IMG/VR virus record: IMGVR_UViG_3300031787_000089
Span: 1 to 64,000 of that record
Strand: one strand, 5' to 3'
Source of the DNA: a virus
DNA: 64,000 bases
In this document: piece by piece, positions 2,476-64,000 of the stretch
Layout of the letters: each line of letters opens with the position of its first letter
Position numbering within the stretch: the first letter of the stretch is position 1
Translations under genes and position numbers: made by a program
The notes under the pieces: model-generated
What the model saw: the letters and a program-made list of their open reading frames with translations, nothing else
Told to the model about the DNA's origin: nothing
Database searches by the model: none

Positions 2476-2478
2476 AAA

Positions 2479-2808: not shown

Positions 2809-2820
2809 GGAATTATAAAA

Positions 2821-3195: not shown

Positions 3196-3198
3196 ATA
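3191..3198 (+). promoter_or_regulatory. Late promoter octamer (AATAAATA)
   Basis: Overlaps the stop of the upstream gene. It lies 21 bases before ATG 3220, with an ACGAGGAT ribosome site between: the leader-bearing class of late promoter in this genome. Confidence 0.55.
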
Positions 3199-3219
3199 TA
3201 AAATTAACGAGGATTAACC

Positions 3220-50410: not shown

Positions 50411-50808
50411 TAGTTTGCCTTTTTCCAAAAATTTATACTTTTATGATTACCCAAACTTTCATAATTATATTGCCAAAGATGTTTTAAGATCTTTTTACCC
50501 ACCGGTTCACCATGTATTAAAATGATTCCTGCTCTATTAAGGCTGGCAACTGGTGTGAAATTACCAATCTCCCATAGACATGGCTCATCCACTACTAGTA
50601 AATTAAATTCTGGTAATGTTTTTATATCAGTAAAGTTTAGTCTTGGTATTAAATTTTTACTTTTAATCTCTGGTCGTTGAGTGTCATAGACAAACACCGT
50701 GTTGAATCCTTCAAGAAGATCTGGAATATTAATAAAATTACGACCTAATACCACAGCGGTATCACGTTTTGTAATAATTGGTTCTATACGTTTTAAAAAT
50801 TTACTCAT
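50410..50808 (-). CDS. Hypothetical protein leading the minus-strand glycan operon
   Basis: 132 residues. Alternating strands and helices (AVVLGRNFINIPDLLEGF, NTVFVYDTQRPEI, FNLLVVDEPCLW, AGIILIHGEPVGKKIL) look like a small Rossmann-type fold, possibly a degenerate methyltransferase. The motif is not diagnostic. It is the first gene of seven overlapping minus-strand genes ending at 45905. Confidence 0.55.
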   Translation of the reverse strand: MSKFLKRIEPIITKRDTAVVLGRNFINIPDLLEGFNTVFVYDTQRPEIKSKNLIPRLNFTDIKTLPEFNLLVVDEPCLWEIGNFTPVASLNRAGIILIHGEPVGKKILKHLWQYNYESLGNHKSINFWKKAN

Positions 50809-50848: not shown

Positions 50849-51682
50849 ATGCGCATAAAATTATATCGTGAAAATGGTGCTCTTGGCAGTAACGTGGTTT
50901 TTGACGCTTTAGAACAAGGTTTTAAACGTCTTGGACATCAAATTGTTGACAGCAACGAGGACATTCCGGTGATATGGAGTGTACTTTGGTTCGGCCGTAT
51001 GCAGCCCAATCAACAAATTTACAATTTTTTTAAAAATAAAAATAAACCGGTAATGATAGTCGAAGTCGGTTCACTGAAAAGGGGAATTTCATGGAAACTT
51101 TCATTGGAAAATATCAACGGTGACGGAAAATTTAATCAAGAAAATCATTTACAAAAAAATAGACAAAAAGTTTTAGGTGTTGAGTTAAAAGATTTTCAAA
51201 CAAACAGAAAACCCTCAATCCTATTATTGGGTCAACATGATCGCAGCCTCCAATGGGAAGGACTGCCATCAGTTAGTGACTGGATTTTTCAAAAAATTTC
51301 AGAAATTAGAAAATTTACCGATCGTACAATTGTAGTAAGACCACATCCACGTTGTCGTATTAATTATTTTTCAATACCAAATGTTGTTATCGAAACAACA
51401 AATCCAATACCTAACACATATTCTGAATTTGATATTAATTTTTCTCATCACTGCGTAATAAATCATAATAGTGGTACCACAGTACAGGCAGCAATTAATG
51501 GAGTTCCATTAATTTGTGATCCTAGTGCATTAGCACATCCGGTATCCTGTCAACTTAACGAAATAGAGACGCCATACCTCAAAGATAGAACACAGTGGTT
51601 TGAATACATTCTTCATACAGAATGGTTGTTGGACGAATTCATCCAGGGAACTCCACAAGAAAGGTTGATTTCATCGATGTGA
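50849..51682 (+). CDS. Capsule-transferase-like protein, paralogue D
   Basis: 277 residues. Motifs: FTDRTIVVRPHPRCR near 155, HHCVINHNSGTTVQAAINGVP near 198-218, LNEIETPYLKDRTQWFEY near 240. N-terminal half: RENGALGSNVVFDALEQGF and PVIWSVLWFGRM. Divergent from the minus-strand glycan operon. Its last bases contain the -35 of the promoter for the UvsW operon. Transferase function is inferred. Confidence 0.6.
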   Translation: MRIKLYRENGALGSNVVFDALEQGFKRLGHQIVDSNEDIPVIWSVLWFGRMQPNQQIYNFFKNKNKPVMIVEVGSLKRGISWKLSLENINGDGKFNQENHLQKNRQKVLGVELKDFQTNRKPSILLLGQHDRSLQWEGLPSVSDWIFQKISEIRKFTDRTIVVRPHPRCRINYFSIPNVVIETTNPIPNTYSEFDINFSHHCVINHNSGTTVQAAINGVPLICDPSALAHPVSCQLNEIETPYLKDRTQWFEYILHTEWLLDEFIQGTPQERLISSM

Positions 51683-51693
51683 GATGCTATTAT
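51665..51693 (+). promoter_or_regulatory. Sigma70 promoter, leaderless, for the uvsW operon
   Basis: TTGATT 51665-51670, 17-base spacer ending in an extended TGC, TATTAT 51688-51693. Six bases separate the -10 from ATG 51700, so the expected start is the ATG itself. No ribosome site in the gap. Confidence 0.65.
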
Positions 51694-51699
51694 TTTAGC

Positions 51700-52899
51700 A
51701 TGACCATCATCAGATATGTTGAAGACGTATTCATTGAATTTGCTCATGCAGTTGACCTGCGGCAAGTTTCTGTTCAGCCCCAGGACATACCAGCCATTAA
51801 TAGTTTTCAGAATGTAATTCTCACAGGCAAACCGTTAACTAGAGCGCAATCTTCGTTTGTGTTGAAAATTTTAACCAAATACAAAATTGGCTCAAAGATG
51901 GTCGGTATTGACTACCACGACTCAATTGACAATCCCACATGGCGCCATCCGTTTAGAGTTATTGACAACAGTCGAAGTGTATCTGTAGAGCAGGACGAAG
52001 ATGGTGGTTTACAAATTTTGATGAAATTTCCATATCAAATTAAAGAACCATTTGAAAAGGAATTACCTAATTTAAAATCAATGTGGGATTCTACGTTAAT
52101 GTCTAGAGTTATTAAACTAAAAGATGCTAACGTAATTGCCATTAGAGAATTCTGTGAAAAATACGAATTTGTGTTAGATCAAAGTTTCGTCGATTTGTGC
52201 GATTCAGTGGAAGAAATCTGGAATCAAGAAGAAAATTTTCTTCCACACTCTGTTGTCAAAAATAAGTTTGTAACATTGATTAATGCTAATGAAGATGCAA
52301 AAGAATATTTTGAAATCAATAAAACAGACAGTTTAGAAGAAAACATGTTCCTAGCAAAGAGCATGAATTTTTGCCTAAAATTGGAAGAAAAAAATCCAAC
52401 GTTAATTCAAAAAATTGCCACTGCTCACGACAATTACTTTTATACCAACGACATTAAAAATGTGTTTGAAATTTTAAAATCATTACCAACTGCAAAAGTA
52501 GCAGTGCTTGTTGATCGTACCTCCGAGACTCTAAACTTTGTTAAAAATTTTGTAAATTTTGCAGAAAATACAAATTTTCCAAAAAACAATATTCGTGTAT
52601 GTTTTAGGCTAAGTGCCGAAGAGGATAAAGATTTAAAATTTAATCAATGGATCAAAGAAAATCAAATGAATGGTCCTGTGGACTCTGGAAGAATTTATAT
52701 TTTTCGTCATAAGCCCGCAAAGTGGTTGTTTGCAGGAAAAGAAAATGTTAAAATTATAGTTACAAACAGTTTATTTACAAACACTAATATGAGCATTAGT
52801 CATTGGATGGACTCACACCCGTGTGTGATTTTTGTTGGAGAACAAAAACCTGCAATGAGAGCATTGTCAACTAAGGAAAAAAAGATTGTCAACTTGTAA
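51700..52899 (+). CDS. Hypothetical protein upstream of UvsW
   Basis: 399 residues from ATG 51700, chosen because a promoter ends six bases upstream; the frame continues to 51622 only through the previous gene. Segments include LTGKPLTRAQSSFVLKILTK near residue 50, AIREFCEKYEFVLDQSFVDL, TAKVAVLVDRTSETLNFVK and NVKIIVTNSLFTNTNM. The last third could be a Rossmann or helicase-like fold but no Walker motif is seen. Being co-transcribed with and overlapping uvsW by 14 bases, it likely acts in replication or recombination. Confidence 0.65.
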   Translation: MTIIRYVEDVFIEFAHAVDLRQVSVQPQDIPAINSFQNVILTGKPLTRAQSSFVLKILTKYKIGSKMVGIDYHDSIDNPTWRHPFRVIDNSRSVSVEQDEDGGLQILMKFPYQIKEPFEKELPNLKSMWDSTLMSRVIKLKDANVIAIREFCEKYEFVLDQSFVDLCDSVEEIWNQEENFLPHSVVKNKFVTLINANEDAKEYFEINKTDSLEENMFLAKSMNFCLKLEEKNPTLIQKIATAHDNYFYTNDIKNVFEILKSLPTAKVAVLVDRTSETLNFVKNFVNFAENTNFPKNNIRVCFRLSAEEDKDLKFNQWIKENQMNGPVDSGRIYIFRHKPAKWLFAGKENVKIIVTNSLFTNTNMSISHWMDSHPCVIFVGEQKPAMRALSTKEKKIVNL

Positions 52900-54340
52900 G
52901 TTAATAATAAAAGACGAAGTCAACATAAAAATAGAAGGACTTGCTGTTGAAACTCGTAGAAAGATTGTCAACAAATTAAAATTTGATCTTCCCTACGCTC
53001 GTCACATGCCTGCTTATAAATTAGGGCGGTGGGACGGAACAAAAACTTACTTTGGCATAGGCGGCAATGGGTATCTTGCACACCTAGATGTTATTCTTCC
53101 TATTATTGAAGAAAGCGGCTACGAGATTGAAGTAGACGACTTACGATTACATAAACAAATTTCTTTTGAAAGAGTCAACAAAAATTACTGGGCTGACAAA
53201 GGCAAGACCTGGCCCAAAGGTCATCCATCTGCGGGTCAACCTATTGTATTACGTGATTATCAATACGATGTTGTTAATAAATTTTTAGAAAATCCTCAGG
53301 CATTACAGGAAGTAGCAACTGGTGCAGGTAAGACTATTACCACTGCTACACTCAGTCATCTTTGTGAGCCCTATGGTCGTACAATGGTCATTGTTCCTAA
53401 CAAGTCGTTAGTTGTTCAGACTGAAGAAGATTATAAAAATCTAGGACTTGATGTTGGTGTGTACTTTGGTGATCGTAAAGAATTAGGAAAGACTCATACT
53501 ATCTGTACATGGCAAAGTTTAAATGTATTAGACAAAAATAGTTATGATGAAGACGTTCTTTCTTTAGCGGAATTTACTGAAGGAGTAGCAGCAATTATTG
53601 TCGACGAAGTTCATCAAGCCAAAGCAGACGTATTAACTAAACTATTAACACAAAATTTTAAAAACTGTGCTATTAGATGGGGACTAACTGGAACTATTCC
53701 TAAAGAAGCATGGGAGTTCCAAGGCATCTTAGCCAGCATCGGGCCAGTAATTAATCAAGTGTCGGCACACGATTTGCAAGAAAAGGGTGTGTTGGCAAAT
53801 TTGCAAATTAATGTTTTACAAACAACCGATGTTCAAGTATTTAGAAGTTTTCAAGAAGAATATAGCTTTTTAGTTACTGATGCAACTAGACTAACGTGGA
53901 TGGCAAATAAAATTAAAGAATTAGCACTAACAGGTAATACGCTGGTATTAATTAATAGGATTGACACAGGCAATCAACTAATTGAAAGAATACCCGAAGC
54001 GGTCTTTGTCAGTGGCGGTATGAAACTAAACGACAGGAAAGAAGAATATGATGAGATTAAGACAGCTGATAACAAGATTATTGTGGCGACTTATGGTGTG
54101 GCCGCTGTGGGTATTAATATTCCAAGGATTTTTAATTTGGTTCTTATTGAGCCCGGAAAGAGCTTTGTCCGCGTTATACAAAGTATTGGGCGAGGCATTA
54201 GAAGAGCGGAAGACAAAGACTTTGTCCAAATTTGGGACATCACGAGCACCTGCAAGTACGCCAAGCGGCATCTTACGGAAAGGAAGAAATATTACAAAGA
54301 GGCCAAATACCCCTTTACATTAACCAAGGTAACATTATGA
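52886..54340 (+). CDS. uvsW: UvsW, recombination DNA/RNA helicase
   Basis: 484 residues (T4: 503). TTG start at 52886 with AAGGA at 52873-52877; no ATG or GTG precedes the conserved N-terminal domain (IIKDEVNIKIEGLAVETRR, RHMPAYKLGRWDGTKTYF). Walker A ATGAGKT 144-150, Walker B DEVH 240-243, motif III LTGT near 269, motif VI QSIGRGIRR near 447. A superfamily 2 helicase that unwinds branched structures and R-loops, shifting T4 from origin to recombination-driven replication. Confidence 0.93.
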   Translation: MSTCKLIIKDEVNIKIEGLAVETRRKIVNKLKFDLPYARHMPAYKLGRWDGTKTYFGIGGNGYLAHLDVILPIIEESGYEIEVDDLRLHKQISFERVNKNYWADKGKTWPKGHPSAGQPIVLRDYQYDVVNKFLENPQALQEVATGAGKTITTATLSHLCEPYGRTMVIVPNKSLVVQTEEDYKNLGLDVGVYFGDRKELGKTHTICTWQSLNVLDKNSYDEDVLSLAEFTEGVAAIIVDEVHQAKADVLTKLLTQNFKNCAIRWGLTGTIPKEAWEFQGILASIGPVINQVSAHDLQEKGVLANLQINVLQTTDVQVFRSFQEEYSFLVTDATRLTWMANKIKELALTGNTLVLINRIDTGNQLIERIPEAVFVSGGMKLNDRKEEYDEIKTADNKIIVATYGVAAVGINIPRIFNLVLIEPGKSFVRVIQSIGRGIRRAEDKDFVQIWDITSTCKYAKRHLTERKKYYKEAKYPFTLTKVTL

Positions 54341-54843
54341 GAATTTTAACATTAAACAACACGGCCTTTGATTTAAATGATCTGCCGGAAGAAGTAGAAG
54401 ACGATGCTAGATTTAGCGTACTAGATAATAGCAATCCTTATGAACCAGATTTTTATTTTATGCCTCTTATTTTCTTAGAGTCGTTTAACAGTCCAGCAAT
54501 TCTATTACGCATAGGAGAGCACGAAATACAAATGCCATTAGATTGGTGCATGGTAGTTGGAGATAAAGACTGTGGGCAAGACCCAGAAGTATTACCACTG
54601 ACCAGTATTAATGAACGAGGATTTGATGCATTAATCTTTAATCCTATTAAAGGATTTAAAATTGAATACAAGCCCATTGAAATTGTTAATATCTTTCAAG
54701 ATGTTAGATGGTATTTTCCTAAAATGAAAAATGGACAATTACTAACAGTACCAATTAGTGATGATCATAATCCACCTTGCGCATTTTTTGTCAAAGAAGT
54801 CAGTCGTCAAAGCGAAATTATTCAATTAGATAAAATTTTATAA
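54337..54843 (+). CDS. Conserved-type hypothetical protein downstream of UvsW
   Basis: 168 residues from ATG 54337, which overlaps the uvsW stop as ATGA; a longer frame is inside uvsW. Pattern: RILTLNNTAFDLNDLPEEVE, PDFYFMPLIFLESFNS, IQMPLDWCMVVGDKDCG, VRWYFPKMKNGQLLTVPIS, then PPCAFFVKEVSRQ. My impression from memory is that similar proteins occur in other marine T4-like phages; no function is known to me. Confidence 0.65.
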   Translation: MRILTLNNTAFDLNDLPEEVEDDARFSVLDNSNPYEPDFYFMPLIFLESFNSPAILLRIGEHEIQMPLDWCMVVGDKDCGQDPEVLPLTSINERGFDALIFNPIKGFKIEYKPIEIVNIFQDVRWYFPKMKNGQLLTVPISDDHNPPCAFFVKEVSRQSEIIQLDKIL

Positions 54844-55070
54844 TGCCTATACCGTTTATGGACAACGAAAACTTTAAACGTAGATGTATTGGTTGGAAAT
54901 TAAAGTACAGTTTATGGCCACGACGCTGTCATTATACAAATAAAATATTATGGTTTACAATGGCCTATCACGGTGTTGGAATGATCTGTGGTCCCGGAGA
55001 ACCTGTATTTGAAGATAGATGGTGCGAACGAAAAGAGTATCTTTTTTTAAAGATTAAAGGAACAATATGA
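54843..55070 (+). CDS. Small aromatic/basic hypothetical protein
   Basis: 75 residues, one-base overlap with the previous stop. Rich in Trp, Tyr and Arg with four Cys, including RRCIGWKLKYSLWPRRCHYT and RWCERKEYLFLK, perhaps a small nucleic-acid-binding protein. No clear zinc motif. Overlaps the next gene by four bases. Confidence 0.55.
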   Translation: MPIPFMDNENFKRRCIGWKLKYSLWPRRCHYTNKILWFTMAYHGVGMICGPGEPVFEDRWCERKEYLFLKIKGTI

Positions 55071-55423
55071 AAGCAGGTAAAATATGGGGAGTAACAAAAT
55101 TACTCGAAGCTAACGGTGTATTAGAATTTCATCGCATTGAAGCTAACGCCGGTGGGGTGTGTTCGAAGCACAAGCACAAATATAAATGGAATGGTTTCTT
55201 TGTTGAAAAAGGCAAAATGATCATCCGAGTGTGGAAAAACAACTACGACTTAATTGATGAGACACTACTAGAGGCAGGGCAATATACTAAGGTTGCTCCC
55301 GGTGAATATCATCAATTTGAAGCTGTAGAAGACACCGTAGCTTTTGAATTATATTGGGCAGAATTTGATCATGATGATATCGAAAGAGAAACTATAGGAT
55401 ACAAAAATCATGGGACAACTTAA
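55067..55423 (+). CDS. Small cupin-domain protein
   Basis: 118 residues. Single cupin: EFHRIEANAGGVCSKHKHKY (metal-type His residues), GFFVEKGKMIIRVW, then TKVAPGEYHQFEAVEDTVAF. Cupins of this size bind sugars or metal and often isomerise sugar phosphates. It sits in a replication operon, so its role is unclear. The C-terminal end overlaps the next gene. Confidence 0.7.
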   Translation: MKAGKIWGVTKLLEANGVLEFHRIEANAGGVCSKHKHKYKWNGFFVEKGKMIIRVWKNNYDLIDETLLEAGQYTKVAPGEYHQFEAVEDTVAFELYWAEFDHDDIERETIGYKNHGTT

Positions 55424-55664
55424 ACCTGGAGCAACTTATGTTTATGAATCACCGGATGGGGGAGAAACTGTCTATGCTAGAGAAATGGGTAGTACAGAGC
55501 GCCGTCTTATTGGCAAAAGTTACAAAGCAGTTCTTAAAGAAGAACTAAACAGCGAAGTTGAACTGTTCAAAAAAATTCACATGGCTGCAAAGAATGATCC
55601 TGTCTTGAAAGAAGCTGTAGAACGTGTTAAACTATTGTATCACTTAGGTAAAAAAGATGAGTAA
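55410..55664 (+). CDS. Small hypothetical protein before gp62 candidate
   Basis: 84 residues. A beta-type N-terminus (GATYVYESPDGGETVYAREM) followed by two helices (AVLKEELNSEVELFKKIHMA, DPVLKEAVERVKLLYHLGKK). Overlaps both neighbours (14 and 8 bases). No known domain. Confidence 0.55.
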   Translation: MGQLKPGATYVYESPDGGETVYAREMGSTERRLIGKSYKAVLKEELNSEVELFKKIHMAAKNDPVLKEAVERVKLLYHLGKKDE

Positions 55665-56133
55665 ATTAGACCTATTCAAAGATATCATTCCAGCTGTTGA
55701 TTCTGGCATTAAAGATCTTTGGGACGCTTTAGAAGAGGATCAACAGAAAGAATTAAAAAAACTTTTGTTTGTTCTTGGACGCTGGATCAGCAGCCCAGTC
55801 TCTAGTGATCCGGATGTTCAAGCTCACTATATTTTAACTGTTAACGAATATTATAATAAAAATTATTATAAGTTTTATAACCATCCTAAACTGTTATGGT
55901 TACTGTTAACTATGTGTGCTAATCCTAAAGGAAAAGTTGTTAGAAGAGAATATATAAAGTTATCTAGAAAGGCAGAAGGTTCTAGTAAAAAACATAAATT
56001 TTTATTAGATAGATATCCTAGCGCCAAGTTAGATGACGTTGAACTATTGGCTAAAATTTTAACTGACGACGAAGTTAAACAAATTGCCAAAGACATGGGA
56101 CTTGATAATAAACAAATCAAAGAACTTCTATAA
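55657..56133 (+). CDS. Possible clamp-loader small subunit (gp62-like)
   Basis: 158 residues. All-helical, with YILTVNEYYNKNYYKFYNHP, LLWLLLTMCANPKG, then REYIKLSRKAEGSSKKHKFL and a C-terminal DVELLAKILTDDEVKQIAKD. The pattern of marine gp62 (EMN motif, KKLQ-type helix, KR(K/R)F segment, final ELLxxLTDxQ) is similar in layout, but no gp44 or gp45 is adjacent and I cannot align it here. In T4 gp62 joins gp44 to load the sliding clamp. Confidence 0.45.
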   Translation: MSKLDLFKDIIPAVDSGIKDLWDALEEDQQKELKKLLFVLGRWISSPVSSDPDVQAHYILTVNEYYNKNYYKFYNHPKLLWLLLTMCANPKGKVVRREYIKLSRKAEGSSKKHKFLLDRYPSAKLDDVELLAKILTDDEVKQIAKDMGLDNKQIKELL

Positions 56134-56804
56134 TGTTTGTTTGTGAATACTGTAAAAAAGAATTTGTCAAAGAAAAAACTCTGTTTGTTCATGTATGTGA
56201 ACAGAAGCGTAGACATTTGAACAAAGGAGAAAAACATGTACAGGCTGGGTTTATGGCCTATACCAAGTTCTATGAGGTAGCACAAAAAAATACTAAAAAA
56301 ACTTTTGAAGACTTTGTAGAAAGCCCTTACTACACAGCATTTGTAAAGTTTGGCAGTTTTTTCGTTAACACAAATCCAATTTATCCAGAACGATTTATAG
56401 AATTTGTAATACGCAGTAATACAAAATTAGATGCGTGGTGTAGTGATAATTTATATGACATATACATTGCTGAGTTAATCAAACAAGAACCAGCAGATGG
56501 TTCTATACAAAGAACTATACAAACAATGATGGACTGGGCTGATAAAAATAACTCAACTTGGGAACACTATTTTTTGTATGTGAATTTAAACAGACTAACA
56601 CATGATATAAAAGAAGGATTAATCAGTCCGTGGATGTTGTTAAATATTCAATCAGGAAAAGACGCACTGCAAAAAATGAATGATGAACAGTTGGAAATTA
56701 TCAGTACTATAATTGATCCACAATTTTGGAAACGTAAATTTAAAAACTATCCTGCAGATGTTGAACTAATTAAAGATGTTATCAAAGAAGCGAAAATATT
56801 ATAA
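56133..56804 (+). CDS. C2H2 zinc-finger protein of unknown function
   Basis: 223 residues. N-terminal CEYCKKEFVKEKTLFVHVCE (C4, C7, H20 and C22 or H) is a C2H2-like finger, then KRRHLNKGEKHVQ, and a helical body (FVESPYYTAFVKFGSFFV, RFIEFVIRSNTKLDAWCSDN). It may bind DNA or RNA; it ends an overlapping run with the gp62 candidate. The exact fourth ligand is ambiguous. Confidence 0.6.
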   Translation: MFVCEYCKKEFVKEKTLFVHVCEQKRRHLNKGEKHVQAGFMAYTKFYEVAQKNTKKTFEDFVESPYYTAFVKFGSFFVNTNPIYPERFIEFVIRSNTKLDAWCSDNLYDIYIAELIKQEPADGSIQRTIQTMMDWADKNNSTWEHYFLYVNLNRLTHDIKEGLISPWMLLNIQSGKDALQKMNDEQLEIISTIIDPQFWKRKFKNYPADVELIKDVIKEAKIL

Positions 56805-57031
56805 TGCCTAAGAAAAAACAAGAACCGGAAGTAGTAGAACAAGATCTAGCAGAAAACGAAGAACCTCTTTCTAGAGATGATTTAGATATCGAAGTTGCTG
56901 TTGGTAGCGAGGAACCTGTTGTATATGTAAAGTTCAGCGGCTTTGAGGACATTGAAGATGCTGAAGAATATGCAGAGTTTCTTGCAGAAACTTTACCACT
57001 ATTGTTATTTGAGTCAACAAGGTTACAGTAA
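56804..57031 (+). CDS. Small acidic protein preceding the DnaE-like protein
   Basis: 75 residues. Acidic N-terminal half (VVEQDLAENEEPLSRDDLDI), then a small domain VVYVKFSGFEDIEDAEEYAE. One-base overlaps on both sides place it in the same coupled run. Function unknown; possibly a partner of the following mini-polymerase protein. Confidence 0.55.
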   Translation: MPKKKQEPEVVEQDLAENEEPLSRDDLDIEVAVGSEEPVVYVKFSGFEDIEDAEEYAEFLAETLPLLLFESTRLQ

Positions 57032-57609
57032 TGCCAGATATTGATATTGACTTTGCAGATAGAACAAAAGCATTGGCTTTGTTCAAACATCACAGAGCCA
57101 GCAGAGTAGAAGATAACAAATTAGTAGTTCATAACACAGGTGTTTATTTTCATCCTGTGCCAATTGATGCAAGAACTAATCTTTCGTCAATACCATATGA
57201 TCAAGCAGAAGAACAAGGATTTTTTAAAATTGATTTTCTCAATGTAGGAATCTATAAAAATATCAAAGATGAAAATCATCTTAAGACTTTAATGGAGACT
57301 GAACCACTATGGGATTTACTGTTACAGGACGACTTCGTGAACTTATTGTTCCATGTGAATGGGCATGGGTCTATTCTAAGAGAGATGGAACCAAAATCTA
57401 TAGAAGAATTGGCAGCAGTACTGGCAATGATAAGACCCGCGAAACGTTATCTGATTGGGAAGCCATGGACTACGGTGATGAACGAGATCTGGACGAAACC
57501 AGAGAATGACGAATACTACTTTAAAAAGAGTCATGCTACTGCGTATGCTCTTTCAATTATAGTTCAAATGAATCAAATTTGTGAAAGTATTAGTTACGGT
57601 TATAGTTAA
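57031..57609 (+). CDS. Miniature DnaE-like (C-family polymerase palm) protein
   Basis: 192 residues. Four segments line up in order with bacterial DNA polymerase III alpha: PDIDIDFADR (2-11; E. coli DnaE PDFDVDF, Asp401/403), HNTGVYFHPVPI (34-45; HAGGVVIAP), GFFKIDFLNVGIY (63-75; GLVKFDFLGL, Asp555), LFHVNGHGSILREMEPKSIE (106-125), AAVLAMIRP (128-136; FQLESRGM..RPG) and KKSHATAYAL (165-174; NKSHSAAYAL). All three palm carboxylates (Asp5, Asp7, Asp68) are kept, but PHP, most fingers, beta-, OB- and tau-binding parts are missing. DnaE is about 1160 residues. Role unknown; novelty is discussed under findings. Confidence 0.8.
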   Translation: MPDIDIDFADRTKALALFKHHRASRVEDNKLVVHNTGVYFHPVPIDARTNLSSIPYDQAEEQGFFKIDFLNVGIYKNIKDENHLKTLMETEPLWDLLLQDDFVNLLFHVNGHGSILREMEPKSIEELAAVLAMIRPAKRYLIGKPWTTVMNEIWTKPENDEYYFKKSHATAYALSIIVQMNQICESISYGYS

Positions 57610-57977
57610 CCAGCTTTTCTAATTAATACTATGCTTCTACGTTTAATTCTTTTGGTGATAATTTGATTTAGACTTACGCAAGGCCCAAGCATTAATTTAA
57701 CATCTTTGGTACTGAAATTTCTAATAGCGTATCTAAAAGGTTGTATTTCTTTAGCTAGAAAAATACTAATAGGAATTTGTCTATTTGATTCCCACCACCA
57801 AGCTTCCCCTAGTTCTAAAAATCTAGTTTTTTCTTCTTCGCTTTTTAAAGAAGTGTAATCATACATGCTAGTGATACTAGAGTCTTGATTAATAATAATG
57901 CCCACATATTCTTTGTCAACGTAGTTTATAACACTTATAAATGGGAAGTTTTGTTGTAAGTTTTCTGTTATTCTCAT
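57606..57977 (-). CDS. Conserved-type small hypothetical protein
   Basis: 123 residues, ATG 57977, tail-to-tail with the mini-DnaE gene (four-base overlap). Segments: FPFISVINYVDKEYVGIIIN, LELGEAWWWESNRQIPISIF, DVKLMLGPCVSLNQI, and a basic C-terminus (TKRIKRRSIVLIRK). No named domain. My impression is that homologues exist in marine T4-like phages. Confidence 0.6.
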   Translation of the reverse strand: MRITENLQQNFPFISVINYVDKEYVGIIINQDSSITSMYDYTSLKSEEEKTRFLELGEAWWWESNRQIPISIFLAKEIQPFRYAIRNFSTKDVKLMLGPCVSLNQIITKRIKRRSIVLIRKAG

Positions 57978-57978
57978 A

Positions 57979-57986
57979 GGTAAATA
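57979..57986 (+). promoter_or_regulatory. Late promoter octamer (GGTAAATA)
   Basis: 21 bases before ATG 58008, with CAAAGGAC as ribosome site: leader-bearing class. It overlaps the upstream region of the divergent gene at 57977. Confidence 0.55.
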
Positions 57987-58007
57987 TTATTAATCAAAGG
58001 ACCAATA

Positions 58008-58763
58008 ATGCAATTTAATCCAAGTTATTTATACGCAAACAAAGTGGACGTTTTCAGCGATCTTGGCTCCTGGCAAACTGAGAGGTATCGCAAAGTGTAT
58101 CAACGCACCCTAAAAATTTATCGCGGAGTCGATAATCCTATAGATTTTCAAGTTCGCAACTCTGATCAAAAACCCCAATCCATTGCTGGACAAACTGTGG
58201 TATTTAATCTTTTTGCTTATGAGTCGCAAGAACTTATTATGTCCAGAGATTGTACAGTTGTAGATGCTGTTAAAGGTAAAGTATCTGTAACTATCAGTGA
58301 AGGAGAAGCATTAACGCTAACTCCTGGATTTTATACATTTTCTTTATATACTCTATCCAATGGTATTAAAAAACCATTGTACGGAGACAGCCAATTTGGC
58401 GCACTGGGTAGATTAGAATTAATTGGTAACGTGTATGGTAATGTTATACCTACAGATATCATAACAACTTTTAATACAGAAAGTACGTATAAAGTCAGCA
58501 GCATCATTGATGCCAAACCGCATTTGAATAATAATTCTGCACTGCATACTTTTGCGTTCTATGGAACTGCATATAGTGGTAGTGTAGTAATTCAAGCAAG
58601 CATGGACGAAAATACCACTACTGGAAATTGGATTGATCTAGCAACAATTCCATTAACCAATTCTTCAATATCATATAAAAATATAGAAGGCGTTTGGAGT
58701 TGGTTTAGAATCAAGCATACTCAAACTGCTGGAACACTTGACAAAGTATTGTATAGATATTAA
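58008..58763 (+). CDS. Putative virion protein, BppU-like N-terminus
   Basis: 251 residues. An immunoglobulin-like N-terminal domain (YQRTLKIYRGVDNPIDFQVR, TVVFNLFAYESQELIMSR, LTPGFYTFSLYT) resembles baseplate upper protein N-terminal domains. The C-terminal half is a second beta domain (GSVVIQASMDENTTTGNWID, WSWFRIKHTQTAG). It has a late promoter with ribosome site though it sits between early genes. Its last 26 bases contain the sigma70 promoter for gp61. Confidence 0.6.
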   Translation: MQFNPSYLYANKVDVFSDLGSWQTERYRKVYQRTLKIYRGVDNPIDFQVRNSDQKPQSIAGQTVVFNLFAYESQELIMSRDCTVVDAVKGKVSVTISEGEALTLTPGFYTFSLYTLSNGIKKPLYGDSQFGALGRLELIGNVYGNVIPTDIITTFNTESTYKVSSIIDAKPHLNNNSALHTFAFYGTAYSGSVVIQASMDENTTTGNWIDLATIPLTNSSISYKNIEGVWSWFRIKHTQTAGTLDKVLYRY

Positions 58764-58766
58764 AAT
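58738..58766 (+). promoter_or_regulatory. Sigma70 promoter, leaderless, for gp61
   Basis: TTGACA 58738-58743, 17-base spacer, TAAAAT 58761-58766; six bases then ATG 58773. It lies inside the end of the upstream gene. No ribosome site in the gap. Confidence 0.65.
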
Positions 58767-58772
58767 GTATCT

Positions 58773-59789
58773 ATGACTCTGGTCTTAGATACCCTACGTA
58801 CATTACTGCCATATAAAAGAAAGCAAACACCAAGTGGTTGGATTAGCTTTAATGCTCCCTGTTGTCATCATCGTGGTCACAAATCAGATGATAGACTAAG
58901 AGGCGGAGTCACATTTAATGAAGGTTTTGTATATCACTGTTTTAACTGTGGATTTTCTACAGGTTGGCAACCAGGTCGTCCAATATCTTTTAAATTACGA
59001 GAATTATGTAGTTGGTTGGGTGCGTCAGATGATACTATAAAACGATTAATATTTGAAGCTTTAAAAACCGAACGACCAGATTATGTAAATCAACATTACA
59101 CCCCTCCAGTTGAATTTACCAAAAAAGAATTACCAGAAGGTAGTTTGCCGTTAATAGAATGGATGCAGGAAAAATTAGATGTAGAAACTGAACAAAAAAT
59201 ATTGTTAGTGATACAATATCTTATTGATCGTGGATTTAATCCGTTGGCAGAAAACTTTTATTGGTCACCGTTAGCGGGTTATGACAATAGAGTTATAATT
59301 CCGTTTTTGTATCATGGTCAAACTGTAGGTAGTACTGCAAGACGCATTACACCTGGAAAGCCAAAGTATCTTTCAGATCAGCATCCAAACTTTGTATTCA
59401 ATATGGATGCACAGGCTAATGATAGAAAATATGTAATTGTCTGCGAAGGTCCATTTGATGCACTGGCAATTGGCGGTGTTGCACTTCTCACAAACGAAAT
59501 TTCTGAACAACATGCTAGGATAATTAATAGTCTATCCCGTCAAGTTATTTTCGTTCCAGATCAAGATAAAGCAGGTATAGCAGGTATCGATAAAGCTAGA
59601 GAATTGGGTTGGAGCGTAGCATTCCCTAATTGGAATAGCAGTATCAAAGATTGTGCCGATGCAGTGAAAGAATACGGAAAAATGTTTACTATTGTTGATA
59701 TTATAAAGACATCAGTTAGTGGTAATATAAAAATTAATTTGATGAAAAATCAAATGATTAAAAGGATTAAAAATGTTCAGACTAATTGA
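58773..59789 (+). CDS. 61: DNA primase gp61-like
   Basis: 338 residues (T4: 342). N-terminal zinc-binding region with CCHHRGH (30-36) and CFNCGF (56-61), then a Toprim domain: YVIVCEGPFDALAIGG (acidic E) and FVPDQDKAGIAGIDKARELG (DxD-like). It synthesises RNA primers and works with helicase gp41, whose gene follows after the carbamoyltransferase. Confidence 0.9.
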   Translation: MTLVLDTLRTLLPYKRKQTPSGWISFNAPCCHHRGHKSDDRLRGGVTFNEGFVYHCFNCGFSTGWQPGRPISFKLRELCSWLGASDDTIKRLIFEALKTERPDYVNQHYTPPVEFTKKELPEGSLPLIEWMQEKLDVETEQKILLVIQYLIDRGFNPLAENFYWSPLAGYDNRVIIPFLYHGQTVGSTARRITPGKPKYLSDQHPNFVFNMDAQANDRKYVIVCEGPFDALAIGGVALLTNEISEQHARIINSLSRQVIFVPDQDKAGIAGIDKARELGWSVAFPNWNSSIKDCADAVKEYGKMFTIVDIIKTSVSGNIKINLMKNQMIKRIKNVQTN

Positions 59790-59865
59790 AAAAATAAAAG
59801 AATACATTAAAAGAAAACGTAGATTAAAAGAACTACGTAAAAGAGATCCGTTTATCTATAAATGA
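59773..59865 (+). CDS. 30-residue basic peptide ending RDPFIYK
   Basis: ATG at 59773, AAAGGA at 59761-59766, stop at 59863-59865 overlapping the carbamoyltransferase start as ATGA. The sequence is almost all helix-forming and basic (IEKIKEYIKRKRRLKELRKR), then DPFIYK. It also overlaps the end of gp61. My impression is that similar short basic proteins with a DPFIY end occur in related phages. Probably expressed because of coupling and ribosome site; function unknown. Confidence 0.55.
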   Translation: MFRLIEKIKEYIKRKRRLKELRKRDPFIYK

Positions 59866-61331
59866 TTACTTGGGGGATTTCGGCTAACAGTCACAATGCT
59901 GCACTTGCAGTATTTGATGAAGATCATTTAATATTTGCCAGTGAATCGGAAAGATTTAGCAAAATTAAAAATGATCCGCATCTACATCACGATTTAATTG
60001 ACTACGCAAAAACTATTGCGGGCGAACCTGATCTAGTATGTTGGTATGAAAAGCCGTGGCTGAAAACCATGCGTCAAATATTTGCAGGACAAGATTTTGA
60101 ATACAATAGTGTTAAAAAATATTTGTCTAGGTACAGCATTAATGCCCCTATAAAAACATTTAGACATCATCACAGTCATGCAGCAGCAGGTTATTATACC
60201 AGTACATTTAAAGATGCATGTGTTATTGTTATTGATGCAATTGGAGAATTTGAAACTTTATCAATTTGGAAAGGTCAAGGTAAGAATTTAACAAAAGTAT
60301 ATTCACTTTCTTATCCTGACAGCATTGGTTTATTTTACTCTGCAATGACACAACGATGTGGTTTAAAACCCAATGAAGAAGAGTACATTCTTATGGGCAT
60401 GGCCGCATATGGTGACTATTCAGTGTTATTGAGAGACGTAACAAAAGATTTTATACATTTTCCAACTGATTATAAACATCCTGTGTTGTTTAAACAAAAT
60501 TTACATAGAGGATGCAACTGGTGGAAACCTGAACTACAATCTCCTAAGCAGTTATTTGATATTGCAGCCGCAACACAGAAGATGTATGAAATTTGTTTTG
60601 TTAGAATTTTACAGTTCGCACAACAACTTGTTGAAAGTGAAAATTTAGTGTTAATGGGAGGCTGTGCTTTAAATTGCTCAGCTAATTCAAAAATCTTTGA
60701 TTACTTTAATGATGCATGGATCATGCCTGCACCAGGGGATAGCGGATCAGCCATTGGTGCAGTGTTAGCACACAAAGGAACACGTATTAAATGGACAGGA
60801 CCGTATTTAGGTTACGATATTAGTCCACGAAAATTAAACAGAGAAATTGTTGAATACTTACAGATAAACAAAATATGTGGAGTAGCTAGAGGCCCTGCAG
60901 AATTTGGTCCACGTGCATTGGGCAATAGGAGCTTACTGGCAGATCCCAGGGATCCTAGTATAAAAGATCGTGTAAACGAAATAAAGAAAAGAGAAACATT
61001 TAGACCATTTGCGCCTGCTATATTAGAAGAACATGCCAACAGGTATTTTGTAATGCCTACAAAGAAAAGTCCATATATGCAATACACTGCATATTGTCTA
61101 CAACCAAATTTATTTCCTTCTATTGTTCACAAAGACGGAACCAGTAGAGTTCAAACAGTTGGTCCTAATGATAATCCTAAATTTAGAGAACTGTTAGAAA
61201 TGTGGTATGCTAAAACAGGATGCCCTATGTTGTTGAATACCAGTTTGAATATAAAAGGCGAACCTATAGTAAACGACCTAGCAGATTCAATGACTTGGGC
61301 CAGTACCTATGGTTTACCTGTTTTTAATTAG
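59862..61331 (+). CDS. NodU/CmcH-family carbamoyltransferase
   Basis: 489 residues. Start ITWGISANSHNAALAVFDED and FASESERFSKIK; HHHSHAAAGYYTS near residue 101 (metal histidines), VIVIDAIGEFET, LMGGCALNCSANSKIF, and C-terminal YrdC-like/TobZ-type segment GPAEFGPRALGNRSLLADPR with KRETFRPFAPAILEEHAN. The family transfers carbamoyl from carbamoyl phosphate to sugars or natural products. Slightly short against about 550-600 in bacterial members. Inserted between primase and helicase; the likely substrate is a glycan made with the island at 41-51 kb (inference). Confidence 0.85.
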   Translation: MITWGISANSHNAALAVFDEDHLIFASESERFSKIKNDPHLHHDLIDYAKTIAGEPDLVCWYEKPWLKTMRQIFAGQDFEYNSVKKYLSRYSINAPIKTFRHHHSHAAAGYYTSTFKDACVIVIDAIGEFETLSIWKGQGKNLTKVYSLSYPDSIGLFYSAMTQRCGLKPNEEEYILMGMAAYGDYSVLLRDVTKDFIHFPTDYKHPVLFKQNLHRGCNWWKPELQSPKQLFDIAAATQKMYEICFVRILQFAQQLVESENLVLMGGCALNCSANSKIFDYFNDAWIMPAPGDSGSAIGAVLAHKGTRIKWTGPYLGYDISPRKLNREIVEYLQINKICGVARGPAEFGPRALGNRSLLADPRDPSIKDRVNEIKKRETFRPFAPAILEEHANRYFVMPTKKSPYMQYTAYCLQPNLFPSIVHKDGTSRVQTVGPNDNPKFRELLEMWYAKTGCPMLLNTSLNIKGEPIVNDLADSMTWASTYGLPVFN

Positions 61332-61341
61332 AATGTATAAT
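61313..61341 (+). promoter_or_regulatory. Sigma70-type promoter, leaderless, for gp41
   Basis: TTTACC 61313-61318, 17-base spacer, TATAAT 61336-61341, then seven bases to ATG 61349. The -35 is poor, the -10 perfect. It overlaps the end of the carbamoyltransferase gene. Confidence 0.5.
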
Positions 61342-61348
61342 AATAACT

Positions 61349-62773
61349 ATGATTGACAATTACAGTCCCGAAACACAAAAAATATTCTTAGAAATGATGA
61401 TGGCTGATGCTGAATCTTATTTCAGATGTCAAAGCATCTTTGATCACAGTCTATTTGATCGACGTTATCAAGAATCTGCCGAATTTATTAAAGTATACGT
61501 TGATCAATATCGAGCAATGCCAGAATATAACATGGTCAATGCTGCCTGTAACACAGATTTTAAAAAGCCAGACAGCGTTAAAGAAGGCCATGTAGATTGG
61601 CTATTGGATAGTTTTGAAAAATTTGTAAGACACAAAAGTATTGAACGTGCAATCATTAATTCTGCAGATCTATTAGACAAAGGCGATTATGGATCTGTTG
61701 AAACTATGATTAAAGAAGCAGTACAGATTGGTCTTGCTAAAGATATGGGCACTGACTACTTTGCAGATCCTAAATCACGATTAATGGGATTAAAAGATAA
61801 AAACGGACAAATATCTACTGGCTGGAAAAATCTTGATAATAGATTGTTTGGCGGTATGAATCGTGGCGAGCTTAATATTTTTGCTGGTGGTAGTGGTGCA
61901 GGTAAATCATTATTTCTTGCAAACCTTGGTCTTAATTGGGCAATGGCTGGATTAAATGTTGTCTATGTAACATTAGAACTTAGTGAAGCATTAGTTAGTA
62001 TGCGTATTGACAGTATGCTAACAGGAATTCCAACAAAAGAAATTTTTAAAGATATTGAAAACGTTGAAACCAAAGTTAAACTGATTGGAAAGAAGGCAGG
62101 TGCATATCAGATCAAATATGTACCAAGTGGTAAAAATGTTAACGATCTAAGAGCGTATATTAAAGAATTTGAAATTAAAACAGAACGTAAGGTTGATGTT
62201 ATCTTAGTTGACTACTTAGACTTACTAATGCCAATCAGCAGAAAGATTAGTCCTGCAGATTTGTTCATCAAAGACAAATATGTTTCTGAAGAACTGCGTA
62301 ACTTTGCAGTTGAACGTAAAGCTATTCTAGTCACAGCCGCACAGTTGAATCGAGGTGCTGTAGAAGAAGTAGAATATGATCACAGTCATATCTCAGGAGG
62401 ACTTAGTAAGATTCAAACTGCAGATAATGTGTTTGGTATTTTTACATCACGTGCTATGAGAGAGCGAGGACGTTATCAATTACAATTAATGAAAACTAGA
62501 TCATCAAGCGGTGTAGGAATGAAAGTAGATCTAGAATTTAATTTAGAAAGTCTAAGGATCAGCGATCTACCCGAAGATGAACAAGAATCCAGTGGAGGTA
62601 TGCGTCCTACTTCTGGAATATTAGATGACATAAAACGCAAAGCCACAGTAAAGGCCCATCAAGAGGACTCTGAACCAAATCCATTCCAAGGTGCTGCTGT
62701 ACCTAAAGTAAGAGCCAATGTTGAGAGCACGAAACTGCGGGATCTGCTGAACAATATTGGTAATGAAGAATAG
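61349..62773 (+). CDS. 41: Replicative helicase gp41-like (DnaB family)
   Basis: 474 residues (T4: 475). Walker A GGSGAGKS at 180-187, Walker B-like VDVILVDYLDLLM near 283, H4-like SHISGGLSKIQTADNVFGI near 345 and a Q/R finger region. The N-terminal 130 residues form the primase-contact domain. It unwinds duplex ahead of the fork and forms the primosome with gp61. Confidence 0.95.
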   Translation: MIDNYSPETQKIFLEMMMADAESYFRCQSIFDHSLFDRRYQESAEFIKVYVDQYRAMPEYNMVNAACNTDFKKPDSVKEGHVDWLLDSFEKFVRHKSIERAIINSADLLDKGDYGSVETMIKEAVQIGLAKDMGTDYFADPKSRLMGLKDKNGQISTGWKNLDNRLFGGMNRGELNIFAGGSGAGKSLFLANLGLNWAMAGLNVVYVTLELSEALVSMRIDSMLTGIPTKEIFKDIENVETKVKLIGKKAGAYQIKYVPSGKNVNDLRAYIKEFEIKTERKVDVILVDYLDLLMPISRKISPADLFIKDKYVSEELRNFAVERKAILVTAAQLNRGAVEEVEYDHSHISGGLSKIQTADNVFGIFTSRAMRERGRYQLQLMKTRSSSGVGMKVDLEFNLESLRISDLPEDEQESSGGMRPTSGILDDIKRKATVKAHQEDSEPNPFQGAAVPKVRANVESTKLRDLLNNIGNEE

Positions 62774-63002
62774 AAGAGTAAAACTTTGTGATTGGACCCA
62801 AAGTCGTAGTATCGATACTGTTGATTTAAATTGGGTTAGAATAAGACAACTAATAGGATCGCCTAAAGTAGATTGGTTGTTAGATCAACCGCAAACTAAA
62901 TGTCAATTAGTAGTTGATAAACTCAACGAAAATATATCCTTAGTAGCTGAATTTTACGATGATGCTACATTAGTGCTTTACCATTTAACTTGGGCTAAAT
63001 AA
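62763..63002 (+). CDS. Small hypothetical protein after gp41
   Basis: 79 residues from ATG 62763, overlapping the gp41 end by 11 bases; a TTG at 62757 is two codons upstream. Basic start (KNRRVKLCDW), then IRQLIGSPKVDWLLDQPQTK and a strand-rich end (ISLVAEFYDDATLVLYHLTW). No known motif. Confidence 0.5.
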   Translation: MKNRRVKLCDWTQSRSIDTVDLNWVRIRQLIGSPKVDWLLDQPQTKCQLVVDKLNENISLVAEFYDDATLVLYHLTWAK

Positions 63003-63005
63003 TGG

Positions 63006-63350
63006 ATGCGAGCAAAAGAGTTTATTTTTGAAAGAGAATTTTCTAAAAGAAAAAGTGCTACTCTAAGTACTACTTACGAGTATCCTTCTATGCCCAGTGC
63101 CGATGCCTATAGAATTTATAGATTTGGTATGGCTATGGCAAATCATACTATGGCCAATAAAGAAGGACCTACTGGTAATCATGCTGTTATTGTTGCTTAT
63201 ACCGATGGTGACGATGAGATTATCAAAGGTGCTGAAAAAACTACCGGACATAAAGGAAATCTAGCTGCGGATCGTGGAAGTCACGAACCAACAGATACCA
63301 ACAACGTAAGTCCGGTATCTAAACTAAAACGTAACAAATACGGAGTTTAA
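63006..63350 (+). CDS. Hypothetical protein with MRAKEFIFERE N-terminus
   Basis: 114 residues from ATG 63006. The basic/aromatic opening MRAKEFIFERE resembles the capsid-targeting type N-terminus seen at 32615. The middle (DAYRIYRFGMAMANHTM, GNHAVIVAYTDGDDEIIKGA) and the Lys-rich end look like a small DNA-contacting protein. Function unknown. It starts four bases after the upstream stop. Confidence 0.55.
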   Translation: MRAKEFIFEREFSKRKSATLSTTYEYPSMPSADAYRIYRFGMAMANHTMANKEGPTGNHAVIVAYTDGDDEIIKGAEKTTGHKGNLAADRGSHEPTDTNNVSPVSKLKRNKYGV

Positions 63351-63351
63351 T

Positions 63352-64000
63352 ATGTGGTTACGTGAGTTTGATTCTTCTAATAAAATTGTTACTGTTAACA
63401 AACGATTAAATCCTAAAATTTGGAATGATAGTGAACTTAATTCTGAAGTAACTAAAAAGCTATTAGAAATTGCTCGTGCATTTGAAGAATTTATTGGTAT
63501 TGATCTTGATGTAATTGATTATACTATTACAGGATCTAATGCCAATTATACTTGGACTGAATACAGTGATTTGGACCTACATCTTATCATTCCGGGTACG
63601 CCCTCGGAAGAACAACGTGAACTTTTCAATGCTAAGAAAGCTCTTTGGGGCGAGCAACACAACATCACAATAAAAGGGTTACCTGTAGAATGCTACGTAC
63701 AGGGCCAAGACGAACCTCATCACAGCACAGGCGTGTATAGCATTGCTCAAAATCAATGGTTGGTTGAGCCAAAGAAAGTCAAACCAAAAGTAGATGATGC
63801 TGCTGTTGAGGCCAAAAAAGATGCAGTCATGCATGATATCGAAACAGCTATGTTAAGCAAAGATCTCAACAAGCTACGTATAGTTAAAGAGAAAATTACC
63901 AAGATGCGTAAAGCAGGACTTGAACGTGCTGGCGAATGGTCAGTGGAAAACTTGGTATTTAAAATTCTACGTAATCTAGGCCTTATTGATCAAATCACAG
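63352..64000 (+). CDS. Nucleotidyltransferase-fold protein, 3' end outside the window
   Basis: Open from ATG 63352 to the window edge (216 codons seen). After MWLREFDSS comes a helical segment (EVTKKLLEIARAFEEFIG), then ITGSNANYTWTEYSDLDLHL, the hG[GS]...DhD signature of the DNA polymerase beta nucleotidyltransferase fold (GS near 61, DLD near 72-74), and VECYVQ as possible third carboxylate strand. Later residues are helical and Lys-rich. Could modify RNA, protein or sugar; not a classic tRNA nucleotidyltransferase. Confidence 0.65.
   Translation, partial: MWLREFDSSNKIVTVNKRLNPKIWNDSELNSEVTKKLLEIARAFEEFIGIDLDVIDYTITGSNANYTWTEYSDLDLHLIIPGTPSEEQRELFNAKKALWGEQHNITIKGLPVECYVQGQDEPHHSTGVYSIAQNQWLVEPKKVKPKVDDAAVEAKKDAVMHDIETAMLSKDLNKLRIVKEKITKMRKAGLERAGEWSVENLVFKILRNLGLIDQIT

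What the first reader, a model, noticed from the sequence alone, without database searches (positions are those of the whole stretch)
57031..57609. A 192-residue DnaE palm remnant with all three catalytic aspartates
The sequence shows PDIDIDF, HNTGVYF, KIDFLNV, an LFHVNGHG...IRP segment and KKSHATAYAL in the same order as in bacterial DNA polymerase III alpha. Known: E. coli DnaE Asp401, Asp403 and Asp555 are catalytic, and their equivalents here are Asp5, Asp7 and Asp68. Everything else of the 1160-residue enzyme is gone, yet the motifs are intact, so it looks selected rather than decaying. T4-like phages use the B-family polymerase gp43, so a minimal C-family palm in a uvsW operon would have another job: short-patch synthesis, terminal transfer, interference with the host replicase, or a decoy for its partners. 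I cannot say whether it has been described elsewhere.
Basis: partly seen in the sequence, partly recalled or inferred. Interest (0 to 1): 0.82.

Follow-up and report, generated by a model that had tools for sequence, protein, structure and literature searches.

The report
Half of a split phage polymerase
This small gene of a very large bacterial virus makes one half of a stripped-down copy of the bacterial replicative DNA polymerase, the other half being a separate gene far away; the family was described from sequence in 2021 and I found no test of what it does.

Summary
Window 57031-57609 (+) encodes 192 residues homologous to the palm and inner fingers of Pol III alpha (DnaE/PolC), with Asp5, Asp7 and Asp68 matching E. 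coli Asp401, Asp403 and Asp555 and His168 matching the steric-gate His760. It is conserved and under purifying selection. The 'lone remnant' reading is wrong. The rest of the palm is a second gene. On a 209.8-kb contig 99.98% identical to 12.6 kb of the window, a 155-residue protein carries the Pol III nucleotide-binding motif (GVGRGSSVASY) and ends where the window protein begins: the predicted folds map to residues 304-417 and 419-811 of one DnaE structure. The N-half was found in 60 of 61 sequenced phages examined that carry this gene, and in 9 of 16 metagenomic virus records (the seven misses look like cut-off contigs). PHP and HHH domains were not found; a proofreading family-B polymerase is also encoded. 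This is the phage-specific minimal split Pol III alpha that Iyer et al. (2021) described computationally in group 2.2 jumbo phages (PHROG 11778). Most likely the halves assemble into a small second polymerase beside PolB; assembly and activity are untested. New member of a known kind.

The parts
57031..57609 (+). C-terminal half of the split minimal Pol III alpha (192 aa): palm strands with the three aspartates plus inner fingers
57043..57051 (+). Asp5-Ile6-Asp7, equivalent to E. coli DnaE Asp401 and Asp403
   Evidence: 118 of 118 unique sequences, partly circular since the motif was used to find and pick them; the five loci left out by my script also keep both; E. coli numbering
57226..57234 (+). 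Lys66-Ile67-Asp68, equivalent to E. coli Lys553-Phe554-Asp555
   Evidence: Lys66 and Asp68 invariant in 118 of 118 unique sequences and present in the five loci left out
57433..57444 (+). Arg135-Pro136-Ala137-Lys138, equivalent to the RPGP motif of the fingers (E. coli 639-642)
   Evidence: Arg135, Pro136 and Lys138 invariant in 118 of 118
57520..57534 (+). Phe164-Lys-Lys-Ser-His168, equivalent to FNKSH 756-760 with the proposed steric-gate His760
   Evidence: Phe164 and His168 invariant in 118 of 118; role of His760 from PMC8485763 (passages)
52886..54340 (+). context: UvsW-like helicase upstream on the same strand
   Evidence: PHROG 16 'DNA helicase' E 2.1e-74; Pfam ResIII; the name UvsW rests on the T4 homologue named in the CBB paper
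56133..57031 (+). context: two upstream ORFs; 56133-56804 matches PHROG 11058, unknown function; 56804-57031 ends on the first base of the polymerase gene's ATG
57606..57977 (-). context: convergent gene of unknown function (PHROG 11637), 4 bases of tail-to-tail overlap
   Evidence: homologous reverse-strand ORF in 153 of 155 palm loci with room downstream
58773..59789 (+). context: DNA primase (Toprim)
   Evidence: PHROG 47 E 1.6e-38; Pfam Toprim
61349..62773 (+). context: DnaB-like replicative helicase
   Evidence: PHROG 19 E 3.7e-71; Pfam DnaB_C

Best explanation
The gene encodes the C-terminal half of a two-subunit, stripped-down Pol III alpha (C-family DNA polymerase) of a jumbo phage with T4-like replication genes. 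Its separate partner (155 aa in this virus) supplies the N-terminal palm half with the GRGSS nucleotide-binding loop; the window protein supplies the three metal-binding aspartates, the RPGP-like loop and the steric-gate helix. Together they would rebuild the catalytic centre of DnaE; neither protein has room for PHP, thumb, most of the outer fingers or the C-terminal tail. Working with the phage's own family-B polymerase, clamp loader, primase and helicase, it most likely does short, distributive template-directed synthesis: gap filling, primer extension on the lagging strand, or repair. Shown by computation: homology, fold, conserved active-site residues in both halves, purifying selection, co-occurrence, the abutting split point, an intact PolB. 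Inferred: physical assembly and polymerase activity. The exact pathway is the least certain step (about 0.4).
For: Homology and fold of the C-half. N-half in the window's virus: IMG/VR contig G001 matches window 51031-63606 at 99.976% and carries a 155-aa N-half at 11387-11854. The N-half matches Pfam PF07733 at E 8.1e-12, over its cut-off; its model aligns with DnaE/PolC at Z 12.4 to 7.4, next row 2.3. The halves abut: 5lew 304-417 and 419-811, entry numbering. PF07733 is hit once in each of 9 of 9 virus records, only up to profile position 95-97 of 260, where the N-half stops. GRGS/T motif in 80 of 80 N-half loci kept from one scan. Co-occurrence in 60 of 61 phage records and 9 of 16 virus records. 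PHP and HHH_6 in 0 of 9. PolB in 10 of 16; in this virus it has exonuclease and polymerase domains with DINSLYPS and GDTDS. dN/dS medians 0.096 (42 C-half pairs) and 0.067 (8 N-half pairs). Clamp loader gene near the N-half.
Against: No complex was predicted and no experiment was found. The fingers segment with LYQEQ and LRRAMGKK (E. coli 685-715) and the thumb region are missing, so DNA and triphosphate binding must be weaker or done otherwise. No reading frame with both halves was found in the loci held. Seven of 16 virus records (68.8, 198.7, 280.0, 160.0, 138.0, 111.0 and 110.4 kb) lack a detectable N-half, as does phage W12-3 (109 kb, 'UNVERIFIED'). Six of those seven also lack PolB, which lies 21-25 kb from the N-half in six other records, and in the seventh (G003) PolB is only 18.6 kb from the contig end, so cut-off contigs explain them, but this is not proof. 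Foldseek finds no match for the N-half at E <= 0.001 (best DnaE, 0.033); for the C-half, TM-scores are modest (0.33-0.55) and the VIA rmsd is 3.9-4.8 A. The tool warns that Z of 7-8 can be a common arrangement. hhalign against single E. coli DnaE put residue 1 at 481, not at PDFDVDF. The first 51 residues of the N-half have no assigned counterpart.
Confidence: 0.72

Rival explanations
1. The two halves assemble but no longer polymerise DNA; they act as a structural or regulatory replisome part, or as a nucleotidyltransferase on another substrate such as an RNA or DNA end.
For: Thumb and most outer fingers are missing, and a complete proofreading PolB is present, so bulk synthesis is not needed.
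Against: Asp5/7/68, Lys66, Arg135 and His168 are invariant in 118 of 118 sequences, and GRGS is in 51 of 51 aligned N-halves. The steric-gate histidine, which senses the sugar of the incoming nucleotide in E. coli (PMC8485763, passages), would not need keeping in a structural part.
Confidence: 0.17
2. The window protein works alone: a decoy or inhibitor of the host replicase that copies the DnaE active site.
For: It is small, resembles the host enzyme, and is a separate gene.
Against: It keeps catalytic residues that a decoy would not need, lacks the PHP, clamp- and tau-binding parts through which host partners bind DnaE (length; the partner sites are recalled), and travels with the N-half in 60 of 61 phage records.
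Confidence: 0.05
3. It is a decaying remnant of an acquired DnaE.
For: It is much shorter than DnaE, and large parts are deleted.
Against: dN/dS median 0.096, maximum 0.146 over 42 pairs; open frame and motifs kept in the loci read; hundreds of relatives; similar gene order in several phages.
Confidence: 0.01
4. The split Pol III pair is the main replicase and PolB is the auxiliary enzyme.
For: The C-half lies near helicase and primase genes and the N-half near the clamp loader.
Against: PolB of this virus is full length with exonuclease and polymerase domains and motifs A and C intact, whereas the pair has no thumb.
Confidence: 0.05

Closest known systems
Phage-specific minimal split DNA polymerase III alpha of group 2.2 jumbo phages (Iyer et al. 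2021, PMC7824862; passages read); C-half family PHROG 11778
   Same: Same two-gene arrangement: N-terminal NTP-binding piece and C-terminal metal- and template-binding piece in distant genes; no other Pol III domains; accompanied by a family-B polymerase.
   Different: Nothing in kind. Added here: the break point against solved DnaE, co-occurrence counts, selection estimates, the steric-gate match, and a member from this virus.
CBB_328 / Atu_ph07 gp316 'Pol III alpha' (PMC5259590 and PMC6102473; passages)
   Same: These are N-half proteins of the same system.
   Different: The passages read mention only the N-half as Pol III; CBB's C-half (gp287) carries a note of similarity to a 'putative membrane protein'.
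Cellular Pol III alpha (E. coli DnaE, Thermus DnaE, PolC)
   Same: Palm fold, DxD plus D, RPGP-like loop, steric-gate helix.
   Different: One chain (1160 residues in E. coli) with further domains; the phage form is two proteins of 155 and 192 residues.
Bacteroides phage BS-TP1 fractured DnaE (PQ571274)
   Same: DnaE broken at the same place, before PDxDxD, into two ORFs with another gene between.
   Different: PHP and full fingers are present, with a sub-threshold start of HHH; not the minimal form.

Membership tests
Phage minimal split Pol III alpha, C-terminal half (PHROG 11778; Iyer et al. 2021) | Sequence match to the family | tested here: met
   PHROG 11778 E 9.1e-70 over residues 3-186
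Phage minimal split Pol III alpha, C-terminal half (PHROG 11778; Iyer et al. 2021) | Metal-binding aspartates and template-side fingers on this piece | tested here: met
   Asp5, Asp7, Asp68 and His168 conserved
Phage minimal split Pol III alpha, C-terminal half (PHROG 11778; Iyer et al. 2021) | NTP-binding N-terminal piece in a distant gene of the same virus | tested here: met
   Contig G001, nearly identical to 12.6 kb of the window: N-half at 11387-11854, C-half at about 178360-178938; not found in the 68.8-kb window record itself
Phage minimal split Pol III alpha, C-terminal half (PHROG 11778; Iyer et al. 2021) | Family-B polymerase in the same virus, no other Pol III domains | tested here: met
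   PolB in G001; PHP 0 of 9 and HHH_6 0 of 9 records; OB and tau-binding domains were not searched for
Phage minimal split Pol III alpha, C-terminal half (PHROG 11778; Iyer et al. 2021) | Halves assemble into an active polymerase | not testable with these tools
   No complex prediction or assay available; proposed, not tested, in the passages of the 2021 paper
Cellular Pol III alpha (DnaE/PolC) | Polbeta-type palm with the DnaE motifs | tested here: met
Cellular Pol III alpha (DnaE/PolC) | PHP domain, thumb and full fingers in one chain | tested here: not met
   Collinear match leaves out 425-566 and 664-772 of the 5lew chain sequence; PHP and HHH_6 not found in 9 records
T4-type family-B polymerase (gp43) | Match to the family-B polymerase models | tested here: not met
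   Only the Pol III finger family is listed for the window protein in Pfam at E up to 10; the virus has a separate PolB

The most novel reading that the evidence does not exclude
The two proteins form an active, thumbless C-family polymerase of about 350 residues that shares the phage replication fork with PolB (a two-polymerase phage replisome), and the break point before PDxDxD is a recurrent weak spot: it is also where DnaE is fractured in Bacteroides phage BS-TP1, perhaps by a split intein, so the split may descend from a fractured gene that stopped being spliced.
Probability: 0.25. Interest if true: 0.72.

Novelty: new member of a known kind. Interest (0 to 1): 0.42.

Why it matters
If the pair is active it would be the smallest C-family polymerase that I know of, made of two chains broken through the active site, giving a minimal test bed for which parts of bacterial replicases are really needed. 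It would also mean that many large phages run two unrelated polymerases. The gene occurs in dozens of sequenced phages, among them phages of E. coli, Salmonella, Klebsiella and Pseudomonas, where it is often labelled hypothetical, so the question can be settled at the bench now.

Tried and rejected
Rejected: chance match (PHROG, profile and fold agree); pseudogene; lone palm protein. A reading frame with both halves, which would have shown partnership directly, was looked for in the loci then held and not found. A proofreading epsilon subunit, annotated beside uvsW in CBB, was sought: no RNase_T match in G001; 4 of 11 records matched at E <= 0.01, 2 over the cut-off, so it is not part of the core system. 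In the PDB profile search of the C-half a tRNA hydroxylase (8fhc, E 0.0063) ranked above Thermus and E. coli DnaE (E 0.029-0.078); I took it as chance because DnaE matches keep the motif order. Direct hhalign of the C-half profile with single E. coli DnaE aligned Asp68 to Asp555 but misplaced the N-terminus. An intein family match for the BS-TP1 pieces was sought in NCBIfam and Pfam and not found. A tree of phage against cellular palms, to decide between reduction and an ancestral minimal form, was not attempted: too few alignable columns. Literature: looked for the split enzyme and showed no experimental study (one search listed 20 of 38 papers and 20 of 23); one search was for DnaE active-site residues. 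Only the PMC open-licence library was searched. Papers seen as passages only: PMC7824862, PMC6102473, PMC5259590, PMC6892783, PMC8485763, PMC12592400, PMC9123017, PMC10761892, PMC11079468.

Full report
What is there. The ORF at 57031-57609 (+) is real: 192 residues, ATG to TAA, its ATG overlapping the stop of the ORF before it. It matches PHROG 11778, annotated 'DNA polymerase', at E 9.1e-70. tblastn finds it in 64 of 50,697 phage records, all under 60% identity (54.3 to 36.5% in the 60 listed), 63 covering at least 80% of the query; these phages infect Pseudomonas, Klebsiella, Erwinia, Salmonella, Escherichia, Xanthomonas, Agrobacterium, Sinorhizobium and others. In seven annotated phages (Phosso, Atu_ph07, CBB, PHA46, Vibrio 2.275.O, Paride, SCTP-2) the next gene lies on the reverse strand; in RAS14 it does not. 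In the five longer stretches a DnaB-like helicase or primase-helicase gene follows, and a primase is annotated in three (Phosso, CBB, Paride), with an unnamed gene at that place in the other two. A homologue of the window's reverse gene follows in 153 of 155 palm loci with room for it.

It is a Pol III palm. Single-sequence searches are weak (Pfam finger domain E 0.011, below cut-off; NCBIfam DnaE E 8.4e-5). A profile of 108 relatives (A3) hits solved DnaE in three collinear blocks of the 5lew chain sequence (M. tuberculosis-type enzyme): 413-424 with PDIDIDF, 567-663 with the KxDF and RP motifs, and 773-788 with the KSHA motif; E 5.9e-5 for the whole chain, each block weak alone. The AlphaFold2 model is confident (pLDDT 90.6, pTM 0.80). 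Foldseek's 14 best matches are all DnaE or PolC, three at E <= 0.001, TM-scores 0.33-0.55. In the second-look alignment the 14 best rows are again DnaE or PolC (Z 8.8 to 5.7, rmsd 3.9-4.8 A, 155-189 residues aligned); the next row is Z 3.5. The tool warns that Z of 7 to 8 can be common, so the weight lies on the motif order and on the gap to the next row. E. coli numbering was checked on the K-12 gene. Asp5, Asp7, Lys66, Asp68, Arg135, Pro136, Lys138, Phe164 and His168 are invariant in 118 of 118 unique sequences from 155 loci. For Asp5 and Asp7 this is partly circular because the motif served to find and pick sequences; the five loci left out (four with a variant of DIDIDF, one cut off by its contig end) keep all three aspartates. 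His168 corresponds to E. coli His760, the proposed steric gate that contacts the sugar of the incoming dNTP (PMC8485763, passages).

It is only half of the palm. Papers on CBB and Atu_ph07 mention a short 'Pol III alpha' (passages). Those genes (CBB gp328, Atu_ph07 gp316) do not correspond to the window protein but hold the preceding part of DnaE, with GLGRGSSVSSY or GVGRGSCVSSY. The window's virus has the same gene. IMG/VR contig IMGVR_UViG_3300008111_000002 (G001, 209,836 bp) is 99.976% identical to window 51031-63606 over the 12,576 bases compared and encodes a 155-residue N-half at 11387-11854, about 166 kb from the C-half. Pfam PF07733 recognises it at E 8.1e-12. Its model (pLDDT 85.4) finds nothing at E <= 0.001 in Foldseek, though the 11 best rows are DnaE or PolC; in the second look the 14 best rows are DnaE or PolC at Z 12.4 to 7.4 and the next is 2.3, covering residues 52-155 of the model: 304-417 of 5lew and 272-395 of E. 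coli 4jom. The C-half model starts at 419 of 5lew and 400 of E. coli 2hnh. So the two proteins cut DnaE between the LLFERFL segment and PDxDxD. In 9 of 9 virus records PF07733 is hit once, and only up to position 95-97 of 260, where the N-half stops.

The halves travel together. Of the 60 phage records listed, 58 are also listed with an N-half (counted). Of the other two, RAS14 has one, and W12-3 (109 kb, marked UNVERIFIED) does not. Phage fENko-Kae01, listed only, has both. That is 60 of 61; three further records were not listed and not examined. Among IMG/VR records with the C-half, the N-half profile matches in 9 of 16; a first search with one protein gave 5 of 12. The seven misses are the window's own 68.8-kb record and contigs of 280.0, 198.7, 160.0, 138.0, 111.0 and 110.4 kb. 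In six records (G001, G004-G007, G015) the N-half lies 21-25 kb from the PolB gene. Six of the seven misses lack PolB too, and in the seventh, G003, PolB lies 18.6 kb from the contig end on the side where the N-half is expected; so these contigs probably stop short. No reading frame holds both halves in the loci then held.

Both halves are under purifying selection: median dN/dS 0.096 (maximum 0.146) over 42 C-half pairs and 0.067 (maximum 0.178) over 8 N-half pairs of at least 85% identity.

What is missing and what else the virus has. Compared with the 5lew chain sequence, 425-566 (thumb and neighbouring palm) is reduced to about 41 residues and 664-772 (outer fingers) to about 22. The E. 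coli segment LYQEQ...LRRAMGKK (685-715) lies in the second gap. PHP and HHH_6 domains are found in 0 of 9 records, with the controls ringing; OB and tau-binding domains were not searched for. The virus does have a family-B polymerase: PF00136 hits 10 of 16 records, and the 888-residue enzyme of G001 matches the exonuclease (E 8.8e-18) and polymerase (E 9.8e-33) domains and has DINSLYPS and GDTDS. A clamp-loader-type ATPase and a Cpn10 co-chaperonin lie near the N-half in G001; CBB and Atu_ph07 have a clamp loader there too. An epsilon-like exonuclease sits beside uvsW in CBB but is not detected in G001.

How it most likely works. In DnaE the GRGS loop of the N-half and the aspartates of the C-half belong to one active site (established knowledge, recalled), so the simplest reading is that the two proteins assemble. 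The kept steric-gate helix points to templated dNTP incorporation rather than a structural role. Without thumb or tail it should be distributive. Gap filling, lagging-strand primer extension or repair beside PolB fit best; this last step is inference from gene neighbourhood and missing parts.

What is known. Iyer et al. [quoted passage not shown] They suggest that it models the ancestral state. A marine survey (PMC9123017, passages) notes PF07733 in 51.9% of its cluster PGC_A; since PF07733 detects the N-half, this is probably the same system (my inference). My searches showed no experiment on it in the library searched. The window gene is therefore a new member of a known kind.

Loose end on origin. 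In Bacteroides phage BS-TP1 a fuller DnaE is broken at the same place: one ORF of 577 residues (PHP and N-palm, PF07733 positions 3-101) and a second ORF without annotation in the stretch shown (PF07733 93-260 plus fingers), with a Dda helicase gene between. The extra residues at the break look to me like the two parts of a split intein, but no family model confirms this. If right, it suggests how such a split can arise; the paper on phage MIJ3, of the PA5oct group, reports a split PolB with a putative intein (PMC6892783, passages).

Noticed in passing
window 57606-57977 (-): A conserved convergent gene of unknown function (PHROG 11637) overlaps the end of the polymerase gene tail to tail; a homologue is present in 153 of 155 palm loci, most often (65) with a 4-base overlap. 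Possibly a functional partner; in phage RAS14 the next gene is on the same strand.
   Followed up: partly
L177 (Bacteroides phage BS-TP1, PQ571274) 1825-3555 and 4795-6312: DnaE fractured at the same palm junction with a Dda helicase gene between; the extra residues at the break resemble a split intein by eye, and the second piece carries no annotation in the stretch shown.
   Followed up: partly
window 59862-61331 (+): A carbamoyltransferase (Pfam Carbam_trans N and C) sits between the primase and the helicase genes; possibly linked to DNA or surface modification.
   Followed up: no
window 63352-63999 (+): A nucleotidyltransferase-domain protein (PF01909, E 1.8e-4) downstream of the helicase; runs off the window.
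   Followed up: no
G014 (561,116-bp IMG/VR record) 326014-326349: The N-half reading frame there contains one in-frame TAG, which would fit a phage that reads TAG as an amino acid.
   Followed up: no
window 55067-55423 and 49601-50428: A cupin-like protein and a weak glycosyltransferase match, both just under their Pfam cut-offs, near the replication genes.
   Followed up: no
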